Below, in pieces: positions 19,172 through 63,417 of a DNA stretch of 64,000 nucleotides. The notes beneath the pieces are model-generated. The model was not told the origin of the DNA. It did not search any database and worked only from the letters and a program-made list of their open reading frames with translations. Numbering within the stretch: position 1 is the first letter of the stretch; the number at the start of each line of letters is the position of its first letter. Origin of the DNA: Yersinia alsatica (lineage in GTDB: Bacteria; Pseudomonadota; Gammaproteobacteria; Enterobacterales; Enterobacteriaceae); the NCBI RefSeq assembly GCF_902170305.1, contig NZ_CABHWW010000026.1:558001-622000 (forward strand), given 5' to 3'. Both the position numbers and the translations under genes were made by a program.

Positions 19172-20626
19172 TTAATCAGTGTGATAATCATGTTGCTGGC
19201 CAAAGGTCACCATCATTCTTGCTCCCCCCAAGGGGCTTTCAGTGATGGTTATCTTACCTTGATACTGTTCAATAATTTCGGCTGCAACAGATAATCCCAG
19301 ACCTTGGCCGGGGCGTAAAGTATCGACTCGTTGGCCCCGCTGGAAAATTAACTGCCGCTTACTTTCAGGGATACCCGGCCCATCGTCGTCAACGACAATA
19401 GTCAGTTGTTTTTCAGAGTGCAGGGCGGTTATTTCAACGAACTCCAGACAGTATTTACAGGCATTTTCCAGAACATTGCCCATCACTTCCATAAAGTCGT
19501 TTCGCTCACCAAGGAAGGTCACTTCAGGCGAGATATCGAGCGTGAGTACCACACCTTTGCGCTGATAAACTTTATTCAGCGCACTGCACAGACTGTCGAG
19601 CAGGGCAGGGACCGAGTGAATTTCACGGATTAATACATTATGTTCGGAGCGCATACTGGCACGGTGCAAATAATAGCCAATTTGCTGAGAAATACGGCTT
19701 ATCTGCTCCAGCATAATTGGCTCGACTTCTTCAATGGTGGTTTGCTTACCGGTACGCAAAGAGCGCAACGTGGTTTGTAATACCGCCAATGGAGTTTTGA
19801 GACTATGGGTGAGATCCGACAGCGTAGTGCGATATTTGGTATAGCGCTGGCGCTCATTGGTTAACAAGATATTGAGATTTCGCACCAAACTTTGCAATTC
19901 ACGCGGGGGATTCTCATCCAATTGCTCGCGCTCGCCTTTCTCTAGCTGACTTATCTGGCTGACTAATGCCTTAATTGGCCTTAAGCTCCAATAAGCGGCT
20001 AGCCACAGTAACGGGACAACTAACAGTAAGTTAGCCAGTAAAACATAGCTGAACCAATTCCAAACCAAGTCTGAACGCTGCAACTCTTGTGGGATAGTAT
20101 CGACGACAACAATACTGAGTTGTGGCAAGCGGGAGGTGGCTGGGTAAGTATTGACCGAGACGGAGTGTGTTAACGCGCTGCTGTCGGTATCGTCATATTT
20201 TTTCAGCTGATCTTGGGCTTTGGGGTTATCACCTAGCATCATGCTACTGATATGCGTCCCGGTATCAAGCTCGTAGAAGCCCGGTTTTTGTAGCCAGCTT
20301 TTTTCGATATGAGATTCAAGTTCAGGGACATGGCGCTGACGCCAGAGAATATTGCCATCTTTATCGTAAATCAGGACCAGCGTAGGAATATTCAGTTCAA
20401 GTTCGGGAGGCACCGAGATGCTGAGTTTGTTGTCATGCCACTGCGCCAGACTGAAAAATAAATTACTCTCGCCGCGATGTGCGCTGAAGGTATTTTTATC
20501 AAAGCTGACAATATAGCCGACGACAGCAACCATACCATAGGATAGCGACAGCGCTAAGATGACACCTGCTGTCGCCATAAGAAAGCGAGCACGAAGGGAG
20601 AACGGTTTACTATTTTTCCTGAGCAT
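19172..20626 (-). CDS. phoQ: sensor histidine kinase PhoQ
   Basis: 484-residue inner-membrane sensor of low Mg2+, acid and cationic peptides. Transmembrane helix 1 is at about 17-40, the periplasmic PhoQ sensor domain at about 44-190 and helix 2 at about 192-214, followed by HAMP and kinase domains. The phospho-acceptor His lies in [14 protein letters not shown], the N box in [10 protein letters not shown], and the G boxes in DDDGPGIP and GQGLGLSVA. Starts 5 bp after phoP, forming the usual phoPQ operon. The mgrB homologue at 62661 encodes its likely feedback inhibitor. Confidence 0.97.
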
Positions 20627-20631
20627 GTTGT

Positions 20632-21303
20632 CTAGTTGGCGTCAAAACGGTATCCCTGACCACGGATGGTCGTAATCACTTCACCCTCATGTTCCGCTTG
20701 CAGTTTTTTACGTAAACGGCCCATAAGTACATCAATAGTATGGCTTTCACGCAGTTCTGCATCAGGATAGAGCTGCAGCATTAAGGTATCTTTACTCACC
20801 ACTTTGCCAGCATTACGAATAAGAGTTTCGATAATGGTGTATTCGAAGGCAGTCAGTTTAATTTGTTGTTGATTGACAGACAGCTCGCGTCGCGAGAGAT
20901 CAATCTGAAATGGCGGAAAATCAATAACTTGAGATGCCAGGCCGATATTGCGTCGCATCAATGCCTGTATCCGCGCAATAACTTCTTCCAGATGAAAAGG
21001 CTTGGTCACATAATCATCGGCACCAGCTTCCAGCACGGCGACTTTATCTTGCCAGCTTTCGCGGGCAGTCAGCACCAGAATCGGCAAATTAGTCTGATGA
21101 CTACGCCAGCGACGGATAAGGCTTAATCCATCTTCACCCGGTAAGCCAAGATCGATAATTGCGATATCTGGAGCATGTTCCTGTAAGAAATAGTCTGCCT
21201 CTTTGGCATCTTCCGCTGCATCAACTTGATGGCCCATCTCGCGCATTTGCACGGTGAGGTGGTGACGCAACAAAGCATTATCTTCGACAACCAGAACCCG
21301 CAT
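20632..21303 (-). CDS. phoP: response regulator PhoP
   Basis: 223-residue OmpR-family regulator. The receiver domain has the acidic pair ED near residue 8, the phospho-acceptor Asp51 in [11 protein letters not shown] and Lys101 in VTKPF. The C-terminal winged helix ends in [11 protein letters not shown]. Binds direct repeats of (T/G)GTTTA; one consensus site lies upstream of the adjacent outer-membrane protein gene (22063-22079). phoP follows that gene after 70 bp, so read-through from the PhoP-box promoter could make the system autoregulated. Confidence 0.98.
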
Positions 21304-21373: not shown

Positions 21374-21997
21374 TTAGAAGTTGTAACGTAAACCTACCTG
21401 CATAGCTTGGTCGTTGACTTTCCAGTTATGGTAGGTATAGCCGACTTCTGCAGCAAGGCTTTGTGTTAATGCATAATCTGTCATGACCCGCGCTTCATGG
21501 AAGGCACGGCCATCATAGTTTGCTATGCGGTAAGCAACGTCCAGACCAATATCTTGGGACAACTTGCTTTTGATGCCGACTTCGCCGGTAGCACTGTTAT
21601 AAGTATTGGTTTTTTTACCGTTTTTGCTGGCATCAAATACCATGGCGTGGCGACTGCCACCAACTAAGGTATAAAAATCAATATTAGGCGAGAAAGCAAA
21701 ATGGTAGCCCAGTCCAAGTACGGCTTCTGCCAAACCACGGTCACCATTAGCAATGCTGTTTATACGACCATCAATAAACAGGTCATTATCAAAGCCATAA
21801 CCACCGTTAAGGTAAATCCCACCCATATCTCGGTTACCGACATGGCTGTAATTATTTTGGTCAAATTGCTTATCGAAACGTGCATTATTGCTGATGGAAC
21901 CGTATTGCAAACCACCAGCAACATAGGTGTAATCAGCCGCCATGGTGGCAGTAGAGGTTCCCAACAAGGCAAGTGTGAGTAGTGTTTGCTTTAACAT
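21374..21997 (-). CDS. PhoP-box-controlled outer-membrane beta-barrel protein
   Basis: 207-residue predicted outer-membrane protein. The signal peptide MLKQTLLTLALLGTSTATMA is followed by alternating aromatic/polar strands throughout, and the chain ends in LRYNF, the terminal-Phe signal for BAM insertion. The size fits an 8-stranded barrel. I cannot assign a named family. Upstream is a consensus PhoP box with the canonical 12-bp spacing to a -10 element, and phoP follows 70 bp downstream, so expression should follow PhoP activation. AGGAG precedes the start by about 11 bases. Confidence 0.85.
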   Translation of the reverse strand: MLKQTLLTLALLGTSTATMAADYTYVAGGLQYGSISNNARFDKQFDQNNYSHVGNRDMGGIYLNGGYGFDNDLFIDGRINSIANGDRGLAEAVLGLGYHFAFSPNIDFYTLVGGSRHAMVFDASKNGKKTNTYNSATGEVGIKSKLSQDIGLDVAYRIANYDGRAFHEARVMTDYALTQSLAAEVGYTYHNWKVNDQAMQVGLRYNF

Positions 21998-22044: not shown

Positions 22045-22050
22045 ATTATC
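22045..22050 (-). promoter_or_regulatory. -10 element of the PhoP-dependent OMP promoter
   Basis: On the minus strand this reads GATAAT (5 of 6 to TATAAT) and lies exactly 12 bp downstream of the PhoP box, predicting a start near 22038 and a leader of about 40 bases. Confidence 0.7.
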
Positions 22051-22062
22051 AATGACAACGAC

Positions 22063-22079
22063 TAAACCGGGGCTAAACA
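22063..22079 (-). promoter_or_regulatory. PhoP box upstream of the OMP gene
   Basis: On the minus strand: TGTTTA-GCCCC-GGTTTA, matching (T/G)GTTTA-N5-(T/G)GTTTA at every specified position. It occupies the -35 position relative to the -10 at 22045-22050. Confidence 0.88.
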
Positions 22080-60414: not shown

Positions 60415-60555
60415 TTGAAAAAACAACAAAATATTACCCAGAATAGCGATTATTCAACGGGAATTGGCGATGCGCAATTTGCGCTCGTGGTTTTACTGAC
60501 AACATCATGTTTGCTGATTGCAATAACGTTGATTGTGATCCTATGGCTAATTTGA
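60415..60555 (+). CDS. hidden 46-residue membrane protein (TTG start)
   Basis: TTG start with TAGGT 6 bases upstream. The peptide starts MKKQQNITQNSDYSTGIGD and ends in a single hydrophobic helix to the last residue (FALVVLLTTSCLL onward to VILWLI), a tail-anchored layout. It is separated by 26 bp from the next small gene in the same direction. No family recognised. Confidence 0.55.
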   Translation: MKKQQNITQNSDYSTGIGDAQFALVVLLTTSCLLIAITLIVILWLI

Positions 60556-60581: not shown

Positions 60582-60746
60582 ATGGATAAGGGTTTGTTTG
60601 ATGACAATAAAGTCATTGCACTGATCGGTTTACTGTTGGCTGCACTTATTGTAGTGAGTACGATGTTTGTGATGACCTATATGGCGGATCGTCAACGCAA
60701 CGAAGTACAAACTATCGATGTGCAAAACTGCTACAAAAAGACCTGA
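60582..60746 (+). CDS. hidden 54-residue membrane protein
   Basis: ATG start with AGGGAG 5 bases upstream. The sequence is MDKGLFDDNK, then one transmembrane helix (VIALIGLLLAALIVVSTMFV), then a soluble tail ADRQRNEVQTIDVQNCYKKT with one cysteine. The well-placed ribosome site, clean helix and charged tail make translation likely. Follows the 46-residue gene after 26 bp and is probably cotranscribed with it. Confidence 0.7.
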   Translation: MDKGLFDDNKVIALIGLLLAALIVVSTMFVMTYMADRQRNEVQTIDVQNCYKKT

Positions 60747-61431: not shown

Positions 61432-61545
61432 ATGTTGATAACAGTGATTATGACTCTGATAGCGGTTGTGGGCGTAACCGTCTTTCTAAAGATGCCAGTA
61501 ATGGTTCTGCATAAAGGTAAAGGCGCAGGAGGTGATGAACTGTGA
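61432..61545 (+). CDS. hidden 37-residue membrane protein
   Basis: ATG start with GAGGTGA 4 bases upstream. The peptide is one transmembrane helix (MLITVIMTLIAVVGVTVFL) followed by a short basic/glycine tail (KMPVMVLHKGKGAGGDEL). A strong rho-independent terminator follows 47 bp after the stop, and a palindrome precedes it, so it has the anatomy of an independent transcription unit. No family recognised. Confidence 0.68.
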   Translation: MLITVIMTLIAVVGVTVFLKMPVMVLHKGKGAGGDEL

Positions 61546-61864: not shown

Positions 61865-62104
61865 ATGTCTGAAATGTTCACTAATGACCAAGAGCTGGTC
61901 TCTGATCTGGTCGCCTGCCAATTAGTTATCAAACAAATTCTGGATGTGATCGATATCATTGCCCCCACGGAAGTGCGGGATAAGATGTCGCATCAACTTA
62001 AAACTATCGATTTTTCTACCCATCCAGCGGGTGCCGACCCGGTAACAAAGCGAGCTATTGAGAAAGCCATTGCGCTGATCGATATGAAGTTTACGCAAAA
62101 ATAA
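61865..62104 (+). CDS. DUF2594/YecF-like small protein
   Basis: 79-residue soluble helical protein. The pattern [20 protein letters not shown] at the N-terminal side and [15 protein letters not shown] at the end resembles the E. coli YecF (DUF2594) family. AAGGAA precedes the ATG at 61865. An in-frame upstream ATG (61820) overlaps the TGA of a 10-codon ORF (61791-61823) with its own AGGTGAGG site, so a longer, coupled form is possible. Function unknown. Confidence 0.7.
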
Positions 62105-62191
62105 CGAGTACATTAGGCGAAAGCCAGTGGTACAGAACTACCCAGAAGCCAGTCGGGTGAGTAGCGGGTTAAGAACTAACCCGCAAACTGA

Positions 62192-62425
62192 TTACTCAAG
62201 TATGTTATTGCCTATCTTTTTCACTAAAGGGCAATTACTGACGCCAATAATGCCATTTTCACCGTTGATAAATTGGGCGGTGGCAATAGTTCTGGCCGTC
62301 AGATATTTACATTGTAAACCTATGCCTGCTGCGTTCTTCTCACTGCCAATAAGTACGCCATAGCCAGAAAAGAGCAAGCCAAGGTATATGATTGCGGCGA
62401 CTAAGAACAACCTGAATAAACTCAT
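62192..62425 (-). CDS. yobH: YobH family protein
   Basis: 77-residue protein with an N-terminal transmembrane or uncleaved signal segment (residues 1-24). The segment SGYGVLIGSEKNAAGIGLQC followed by KYLTAR is nearly the same as in E. coli YobH, and two cysteines follow the family pattern. Divergent from mgrB with yebO beyond, as in the E. coli yobH-mgrB-yebO neighbourhood. Function unknown. Confidence 0.9.
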   Translation of the reverse strand: MSLFRLFLVAAIIYLGLLFSGYGVLIGSEKNAAGIGLQCKYLTARTIATAQFINGENGIIGVSNCPLVKKIGNNILE

Positions 62426-62596
62426 GTAGTCACTCCCTGTAATTAGTTTTACTTATTTTGTAGCGAGTATATTTAGCAGTTTAACTTGTAATGATGAGTC
62501 GGTTAATAGTAAAAATCCTAAATCATTTTGATTTATAGGATAAACCATCATTAAAGTGCTCTTTTAAGACGATAACAAACATTAGTAATTACATCT

Positions 62597-62613
62597 TGGC
62601 TATAAATGGTTGA
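62597..62613 (+). promoter_or_regulatory. PhoP box at the mgrB promoter
   Basis: TGGCTA-TAAAT-GGTTGA matches (T/G)GTTTA-N5-(T/G)GTTTA at 9 of 12 positions and ends exactly 12 bp before a perfect TATAAT (62626-62631), the canonical PhoP-dependent geometry. Confidence 0.68.
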
Positions 62614-62625
62614 TGTTTAATACAG

Positions 62626-62631
62626 TATAAT
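62626..62631 (+). promoter_or_regulatory. -10 element of mgrB
   Basis: TATAAT, 35 bp before the TTG start codon, giving a predicted leader of about 23 bases with TAAGG as ribosome site. Confidence 0.7.
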
Positions 62632-62660
62632 TTAAAAAAATGTTAAGTAAGGTGCTCGAT

Positions 62661-62804
62661 TTGAACATAAAGAAACTTGTTGCAACGGTAGGTATCATTG
62701 CCGTTTGTTGCTTGTTTTATCTATTAGCCCTTGATAGCTACTGTGATCAGGGGGGGACTTTCTCTACCGGTATTTGTACTATTACTTCGATTATTCCATG
62801 GTAA
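62661..62804 (+). CDS. mgrB: PhoQ feedback inhibitor MgrB
   Basis: 47-residue membrane peptide with a TTG start. It shows all MgrB hallmarks: a short basic N-terminus (MNIKK), one transmembrane helix, then periplasmic CDQ with the second cysteine in GIC, and the C-terminal IPW. In E. coli MgrB binds PhoQ in the inner membrane and represses it; the two cysteines form the functional disulfide. It lies between yobH and yebO as in E. coli. The upstream PhoP box closes a feedback loop with the phoPQ genes at 19172-21303. An extra CC pair sits inside the transmembrane helix. Confidence 0.9.
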   Translation: MNIKKLVATVGIIAVCCLFYLLALDSYCDQGGTFSTGICTITSIIPW

Positions 62805-62960
62805 GGATAGGCGACTCATTTTATCTATAATAACAGTTGAAAACTATTACTATGAGTTATCTTTATTAACGGTTAATTAACCACAGGGATTTACCTTTGT
62901 GGTGGGCAGAGTGATAAGATAGCCTCTTCGCCACGCATGTAATCGGTAATAGGGTAGTCA

Positions 62961-63236
62961 ATGTCAGACACAACTATGGGCGCACTTGGTGCCATCCCAA
63001 TCGCTTTATCACTATTTACTGTCATTTTTTTCTTGATAGTTTGGTTCTTTTTGAGCCGTGCTAGTGTACGAGCAAATGAACAGATCCGCTTGTTACAAGA
63101 CATCGCTGAACAGCAGAGACAGCAAACAGAATTGCTCAAAGCATTACTGGAAAACGCCACGGGCGTCAGTGATGGGCAAAGTGATAGCGATATCGTTTCT
63201 CCCCTCGATTTTAAAGGTTTTATTCCCGAGAGATAA
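62961..63236 (+). CDS. yebO: YebO family protein
   Basis: 91-residue protein. The N-terminal transmembrane helix (about 10-32) is followed by a coiled-coil-like segment [21 protein letters not shown], matching E. coli YebO (there FFINRASSRTNEQIELLE). It follows mgrB by 156 bp on the same strand, as in E. coli. Function unknown. Confidence 0.88.
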
Positions 63237-63246
63237 CATTCATCGC

Positions 63247-63280
63247 CATTCTGATACTGCCCATCGGCAGTGTCAGAATG
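63247..63280 (+). terminator. hairpin after yebO
   Basis: CATTCTGA / TCAGAATG with inner ACTGCC / GGCAGT arms form a long imperfect stem 10 bp after the yebO stop. No T run follows, so terminator activity is uncertain. Confidence 0.5.
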
Positions 63281-63417
63281 ATGAGCCAGTGCTCCCTTTC
63301 CCTAACTCCCTCTGTATGTTTTAGATTTTCCCTTTCGCACGCCACAATAAACCCTACTAGCTGTCATAAATTTGTCTTAATTTCGCCGTAATGTAGCCAG
63401 AACTTTTCAGGAGAACG

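What the first reader, a model, noticed from the sequence alone, without database searches (positions are those of the whole stretch)
62597..62804. MgrB homologue with TTG start and a PhoP-type promoter, on the same stretch as phoPQ
The 47-codon ORF is too short for normal ORF cut-offs and starts with TTG, so it is easily missed. It keeps CDQ, GIC and IPW, the signature of the PhoQ inhibitor MgrB, but the rest diverges (two extra adjacent cysteines in the helix). A PhoP box of 9/12 ends exactly 12 bp before a perfect TATAAT. With phoPQ 41 kb away the window contains a full activator-inhibitor loop.
Basis: partly seen in the sequence, partly recalled or inferred. Interest (0 to 1): 0.72.

Follow-up and report, generated by a model that had tools for sequence, protein, structure and literature searches.

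The report
Yersinia MgrB, the known PhoQ brake
This is the Yersinia copy of MgrB, a known 47-residue membrane protein that damps the magnesium-sensing PhoQ/PhoP system; the gene is real and starts with TTG, but it is an ordinary, already described member of its family.

Summary
The gene is real and correctly named. Window 62661-62804 (+) encodes a 47-residue protein that passes the cut-offs of Pfam MgrB and the NCBIfam MgrB equivalog, in a Yersinia close to Y. frederiksenii. TTG at 62661 is the start: 24 of 24 Yersinia copies have TTG (21) or GTG (3) there, the selection signature begins there, and of the three candidates only it has a good Shine-Dalgarno match. It is not peculiar: E. coli mgrB starts with GTG, and 136 of 156 family copies have GTG or TTG at that codon. 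One of the 'two extra cysteines' (C16) is shared with E. coli; only C17 is extra. PhoP box and TATAAT are as described, but at this strength the genome holds 32 such sites against 29 for a control pattern; conserved position and spacing make the box likely, not proven. phoPQ lies 41 kb away, but that distance is not kept across the genus. MgrB of Y. pestis was reported in 2009 to repress PhoP-dependent transcription (PMC2789325). Verdict: already known; the widespread non-ATG start is the one point worth a follow-up.

The parts
62661..62804 (+). mgrB, 47 codons plus stop, TTG start; predicted inner-membrane PhoQ inhibitor
   Evidence: PF13998 51.9 bits (cut-off 27); NF007635.1 MgrB equivalog 73 bits (cut-off 40); variable columns by codon position 14/5/38 of 46 across 24 Yersinia
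62649..62654 (+). Shine-Dalgarno AAGGTG, 6 nt before the TTG
   Evidence: anti-SD duplex energy -4.7 for the TTG, 0.7 for the upstream ATG, -0.9 for the GTG between them
62626..62631 (+). -10 hexamer TATAAT
   Evidence: of 23 fetched Yersinia loci 20 have a box >=9 at spacing 12, and all 20 have TATAAT; no -35/-10 pair on the + strand at 62100-63300
62597..62613 (+). PhoP-box-like site, 9 of 12, direct orientation, 12 nt before the -10
   Evidence: conserved block 0.89-0.94 at 62591-62610 against 0.60-0.75 at 62511-62580; genome-wide count at this stringency 32 against 29 for a control
62192..62425 (-). yobH, divergent neighbour
   Evidence: PF13996 100.7 bits; same order in E. coli
62961..63236 (+). 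yebO, downstream neighbour
   Evidence: PF13974 98.1 bits; same order in E. coli
20632..21303 (-). phoP
   Evidence: NF008078 459.2 bits, cut-off 336
19172..20626 (-). phoQ, the target kinase
   Evidence: NF008077 910 bits, cut-off 497; residues matching E. coli Y32, Y197, L204 identical, I38 is V
21374..21997 (-). 207-aa outer-membrane beta-barrel protein directly upstream of phoP; by length and place the y1795 counterpart (not compared by sequence)
   Evidence: PF13505 39.8 bits; Y. pestis y1795 is 207 aa and heads the phoPQ operon (PMC2650801, passages)
22045..22079 (-). PhoP box 12 of 12, 12-nt spacer, GATAAT, before that operon

Best explanation
It is the Yersinia mgrB gene. PhoP-P, made when PhoQ is active in low Mg2+, binds the box at 62597-62613 in place of a -35 element and recruits RNA polymerase to the TATAAT (inferred). 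Translation starts at the TTG (supported by comparison). The 47-residue protein sits in the inner membrane with a short cytosolic end carrying lysines, one transmembrane helix and a periplasmic loop closed by C28-C39. It binds PhoQ near its transmembrane and linker regions and lowers its output, which closes a negative feedback loop (shown in print for relatives, inferred here).
For: Curated profiles. MgrB in 24 of 25 Yersinia genomes searched and PhoQ in 25 of 25; in the 25th (G024) the contig edge lies at the mgrB stop codon, so the gene could not be seen. Family search of 295 genomes: both genes in 135, PhoQ alone in 49, MgrB alone in 3 (G340, 49% complete; G358, 87%; G576, 97%). Gene order yobH-mgrB-yebO. 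C28, F34, G37, C39, W47 identical to E. coli; Y20 for W20, and W20Y is active in E. coli (PMC10576120, passages). PhoQ contact positions Y32, Y197, L204 identical. Y. pestis MgrB represses a PhoP-dependent reporter and is said to complement E. coli, data not shown (PMC2789325, section 9). Promoter: of 156 loci, 108 have a box >=9 with a TAnnnT 11-13 nt on, and 105 of the 108 have exactly 12; shuffled upstream sequences reach the observed score in 0-3.5% of 200 trials for each of the 23 Yersinia loci.
Against: K2, K3, Q22, F24 and D31, important in E. coli (PMC8404706, passages), are N, I, L, L and G here; lysines lie at 4 and 5. The PhoP box has no genome-wide excess at its stringency. Over all 156 loci the median share of shuffles reaching the observed promoter score is 7%, so most single loci are not significant by themselves, and 48 of 156 fail the box test. 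The main text of the Y. pestis PhoP regulon paper has no 'mgrB' and one 'yobG', a Salmonella fusion (PMC2650801, term counts and passages); the gene could appear there under a locus tag, and its Tables S2 and S3 could not be opened.
Confidence: 0.88

Rival explanations
1. The protein starts at the ATG at 62640 and has 54 residues.
For: ATG is the commoner start in general (recalled), and the frame is open there.
Against: ATG at that codon in 12 of 24 Yersinia; no Shine-Dalgarno (0.7); the seven codons before the TTG vary about equally at all codon positions (4/6/5 of 7, ungapped comparison) while the 46 after it vary 14/5/38. It begins 9 nt after the end of the -10, so the mRNA would be almost leaderless (inferred).
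Confidence: 0.04
2. mgrB here is a real PhoQ inhibitor but is transcribed mainly without PhoP, from a consensus -10, so the feedback is weak in Yersinia.
For: Among loci with box >=9 at spacing 12, the -10 is TATAAT (6 of 6) in 20 of 20 Yersinia against 3-4 of 6 in 84 of 85 others; the second half-box is 5 of 6 in 20 of 20 Yersinia but 6 of 6 in 80 of 85 others. No genome-wide excess of such sites.
Against: The box block is among the most conserved stretches upstream (0.89-0.94); no -35 was found; the whole box scores 9 in 19 of 20 Yersinia loci, and 3+6 is the commonest first half in the others, so totals are alike. The others also carry a TGn before the -10 in 62 of 85, Yersinia in 0 of 20, so the stronger -10 may only replace that element.
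Confidence: 0.2
3. A decayed or non-functional mgrB remnant.
For: Only 15 of 47 residues identical to E. coli MgrB.
Against: Strong third-position bias of variation, and intact frames in all 24 Yersinia copies examined.
Confidence: 0.02

Closest known systems
MgrB (YobG) of E. coli and Salmonella
   Same: Against E. coli: 47 residues, ungapped alignment, non-ATG start, C16, C28, C39, F34, G37, I45-P46-W47, yobH-mgrB-yebO order
   Different: 15 of 47 residues identical to E. coli; Y20 for W20; lysines at 4-5 rather than 2-3; extra C17. Salmonella yobG has two PhoP boxes (architecture II; PMC3335776, passages)
MgrB of Y. pestis (PMC2789325, section 9 and passages read)
   Same: same genus; reported there to repress PhoP-dependent transcription. 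A fetched Yersinia copy with the same peptide as the Y. similis locus is identical to the window protein at 40 of 47 residues (L062 and L012)
   Different: another species; its own sequence was not fetched or compared here
PhoP architecture I promoters such as mgtA, phoP, slyB of Salmonella (PMC3335776, passages)
   Same: single box in direct orientation 12 nt before the -10, overlapping the -35 place
   Different: the box here matches at 9 of 12 only; PhoP binding untested

Membership tests
MgrB | Curated profile match | tested here: met
   PF13998 51.9 bits against 27; NF007635.1 73 bits against 40
MgrB | Essential periplasmic cysteines C28 and C39 | tested here: met
   both present at the same positions
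MgrB | Other residues that alanine scanning found important in E. coli (K2, K3, W20, Q22, F24, D31, F34, G37, W47) | tested here: inconclusive
   F34, G37, W47 identical, W20 is Y (active in E. coli); K2, K3, Q22, F24, D31 differ
MgrB | Gene order yobH-mgrB-yebO | tested here: met
MgrB | phoQ in the same genome | tested here: met
   window 19172-20626; PhoQ found in 135 of 138 MgrB genomes of the family search
MgrB | Inhibits PhoQ | not testable with these tools
   in this genus published for Y. pestis MgrB (PMC2789325, section 9)
PhoP-activated promoter, architecture I | Box in direct orientation 12 nt before the -10, no -35 | tested here: met
PhoP-activated promoter, architecture I | Match to the PhoP box better than genome background | tested here: not met
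   32 sites in the genome against 29 for the reversed pattern at <=3 mismatches
PhoP-activated promoter, architecture I | PhoP binding and PhoP-dependent transcription | not testable with these tools
   no experiment on Yersinia mgrB transcription was seen in the passages read

The most novel reading that the evidence does not exclude
The weak start codon of mgrB is a conserved throttle. Across the family the feedback inhibitor is kept on GTG or TTG (136 of 156 copies at the homologous codon, ATG in 1), so that PhoQ is never fully silenced. In Yersinia this is paired with a consensus -10, giving a brake that is transcribed more readily and translated sparingly.
Probability: 0.15. Interest if true: 0.4.

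Novelty: already known. Interest (0 to 1): 0.15.

Why it matters
MgrB sets how strongly enteric bacteria answer low Mg2+ and antimicrobial peptides, and its loss is a reported route to polymyxin resistance in Klebsiella (abstracts in the listing). The Yersinia copy fits that picture and adds no new kind of part. What could be new is quantitative: a widespread non-ATG start, and a Yersinia promoter whose -10 differs from that of other genera. Both can be tested with reporters in E. coli K-12.

Tried and rejected
Loss of MgrB in one Yersinia (G024) was considered and rejected: its contig edge lies at the mgrB stop codon, so the gene itself is out of view.

The idea that nearness of mgrB to phoPQ is meaningful was rejected. 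Of 24 Yersinia genomes with both genes located, 18 have them on one contig; 11 of these lie at 29-55 kb and 7 at 583 kb or more in raw coordinates, of which G002 would be about 175 kb round a circle.

A trade-off of weak PhoP box for strong -10 in Yersinia was considered; total box scores are alike, so only the -10, the second half-box and the TGn differ.

No plasmid copies at E 1e-5 (72,556 records), no solved structure by sequence up to E 1, no Rfam match in the window at gathering scores.

Literature on the non-ATG start of mgrB (the held open-access library only): one paper numbers K. pneumoniae mgrB from its GTG start codon (PMC6054975, one passage). Of the other listed papers I opened PMC12350097, PMC3313959 and PMC9650054 by term search: two name MgrB only as an example of a small protein, the Yersinia annotation paper does not name mgrB or yobG. 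PMC10117436 gave nothing on the start. The rest of those listings was not opened. A statement that the non-ATG start is conserved was not met.

Full report
What is there. Window 62661-62804 (+) reads, from a TTG, a 47-residue protein ending CDQ...GIC...IIPW. It passes the curated cut-offs of Pfam MgrB (51.9 bits against 27) and of the NCBIfam equivalog 'PhoP/PhoQ regulatory lipoprotein MgrB' (73 against 40). Its neighbours are yobH (divergent) and yebO (downstream), the same order as in E. coli. One scan of named genomes gave 40 loci. The nearest is Y. frederiksenii ATCC 33641 (100% over the 54-aa query); the others are Yersinia, Serratia and Photorhabdus, apart from one Muribaculaceae match that lies inside a long unrelated frame (L041).

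Which start. An in-frame ATG at 62640 (54 aa) and a GTG at 62652 (50 aa) precede the TTG. In the 24 Yersinia copies (23 fetched plus the window) the codon 47 before the stop is TTG in 21 and GTG in 3, while the ATG at codon 54 is in 12 of 24. In codons 2-47 the variable columns are 14, 5 and 38 of 46 at codon positions 1, 2 and 3. In the seven codons before, compared without gaps although some species have indels there, they are 4, 6 and 5 of 7. The anti-Shine-Dalgarno duplex energy is -4.7 for the TTG, 0.7 for the ATG and -0.9 for the GTG. The TTG is therefore the start with high confidence. It is not a peculiarity: E. coli mgrB starts with GTG (strain M217) and K. pneumoniae mgrB is numbered from a GTG in print (PMC6054975, passage). 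In 156 fetched copies the homologous codon is GTG in 93, TTG in 43, ATG in 1 and another codon or a gap in 19; of these 19, six have an ATG two codons away, three a TTG one or two codons away, and ten no start codon within four codons. These counts say which codon stands at the homologous place, not that each is the proven start: 123 of 156 copies have GTG or TTG exactly 47 codons before the stop, and 29 of those 123 also have an in-frame ATG further upstream.

Residues. Against E. coli MgrB 15 of 47 positions are identical without gaps: V7, V10, C16, L18, C28, D29, Q30, F34, G37, I38, C39, I41, I45, P46 and W47. So C16 is not extra; it is shared, and dispensable in E. coli (PMC10576120; PMC8404706; passages). 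Only C17 is additional, and the CC pair is in 23 of 23 fetched Yersinia copies and the window. Of residues found important in E. coli (PMC8404706, passages), C28, F34, G37, C39 and W47 are kept, W20 is Y, and K2, K3, Q22, F24 and D31 differ. W20Y was active in E. coli (PMC10576120, passages). In the window's PhoQ the residues matching the published cross-link partners Y32, Y197 and L204 are identical and I38 is V; PhoQ identity to E. coli K-12 is 303 of 481 aligned positions.

Promoter. 62597-62613 matches (T/G)GTTTA-N5-(T/G)GTTTA at 9 of 12 and ends 12 nt before TATAAT, the spacing of PhoP architecture I (PMC3335776, passages). The only -35/-10 pair found at 62100-63300 is on the other strand at 63276-63248, as expected if the activator replaces the -35. 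The block is conserved in Yersinia (mean majority fraction 0.89-0.94 at 62591-62610, 0.60-0.75 at 62511-62580). Of 156 loci, 108 have a box of 9 or more with a TAnnnT 11-13 nt downstream, and 105 of these have exactly 12; 48 of 156 fail. Controls are mixed. For the 23 Yersinia loci shuffled upstream sequences reach the observed score in 0-3.5% of 200 trials each, but the median over all 156 is 7%. In the whole genome, sites as good as the window's number 32, the reversed pattern 29. A positive control is in the window: before the 207-aa gene upstream of phoP there is a 12-of-12 box with the same spacing, where Y. pestis y1795, the first gene of the phoPQ operon, has its mapped PhoP promoter (PMC2650801, passages). 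Among loci with box >=9 at spacing 12, the mgrB -10 is TATAAT in 20 of 20 Yersinia and 3 or 4 of 6 in 84 of 85 others; the second half-box is 5 of 6 in 20 of 20 and 6 of 6 in 80 of 85; TGn precedes the -10 in 0 of 20 and 62 of 85. A higher PhoP-independent level in Yersinia is thus possible.

Loop. phoP (20632-21303) and phoQ (19172-20626) are on the minus strand. In the genus PhoQ is found in 25 of 25 genomes and MgrB in 24 of 25; in the exception the contig edge lies at the mgrB stop codon. In 295 family genomes MgrB is in 138, PhoQ (E <= 1e-120) in 184, both in 135, which agrees with the published remark that genomes with mgrB have phoPQ but not the converse (PMC2789325, section 9). In an order-wide sample MgrB is in 14 of 295, all in the window's own family. 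The short distance to phoPQ is shared by some Yersinia only (11 of 18 with both genes on one contig lie at 29-55 kb).

What is known. Lippa and Goulian (PMC2789325; passages and section 9 read) list MgrB of Y. pestis and other genera and report that over-expression of Y. pestis MgrB represses a PhoP-dependent reporter there; complementation of E. coli is stated as data not shown. The finding is thus an ordinary member of a described family in a described genus. What I did not see in print is a test of PhoP control of Yersinia mgrB. For this I looked at PMC2650801 (passages and section 14), PMC2322996 and PMC2908699 (term counts: no mgrB, no yobG; passages), PMC8867023 (one passage) and the listings; supplementary tables could not be opened.

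Mechanism, shown and inferred. Shown here by sequence: gene, start, conservation, gene order, promoter geometry. Shown elsewhere for relatives: PhoQ inhibition, cysteine requirement. Inferred for this genome: PhoP activation of the promoter and inhibition of this PhoQ.

Noticed in passing
window 60415-60555, 60582-60746, 61432-61545 (+): Three small ORFs (about 46, 54 and 37 aa) with a hydrophobic stretch each, no Pfam match at E 0.1. In 39 named relatives' loci tblastn finds them in 12, 13 and 27, in each case including the 12 Yersinia loci; candidates for small membrane proteins without a family.
   Followed up: partly
window 22045-22079 (-): PhoP box 12 of 12 with a 12-nt spacer to GATAAT before the 207-aa beta-barrel gene upstream of phoP, in the place of the published y1795 operon promoter of Y. 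pestis.
   Followed up: partly
L232 1501-1535 (G000:C38:124322-124356, -): The one 0-mismatch match to PhoP box plus TATAAT in the genome lies directly before a LacI-type ORF that starts at L232:1536; it looks like treR (name recalled, not tested).
   Followed up: no
156 mgrB loci: GTG/TTG at the homologous start codon in 136 of 156 copies, ATG in 1.
   Followed up: partly
G410:C1:2197513-2197593; L040/L203: Two relatives with a disturbed mgrB frame: a TAG inside, and a Serratia rubidaea copy whose open frame is only 39 codons. Described only.
   Followed up: no
G024:C18 contig end (L139): The contig breaks at the mgrB stop codon; an insertion there or a plain assembly gap cannot be told apart.
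   Followed up: no
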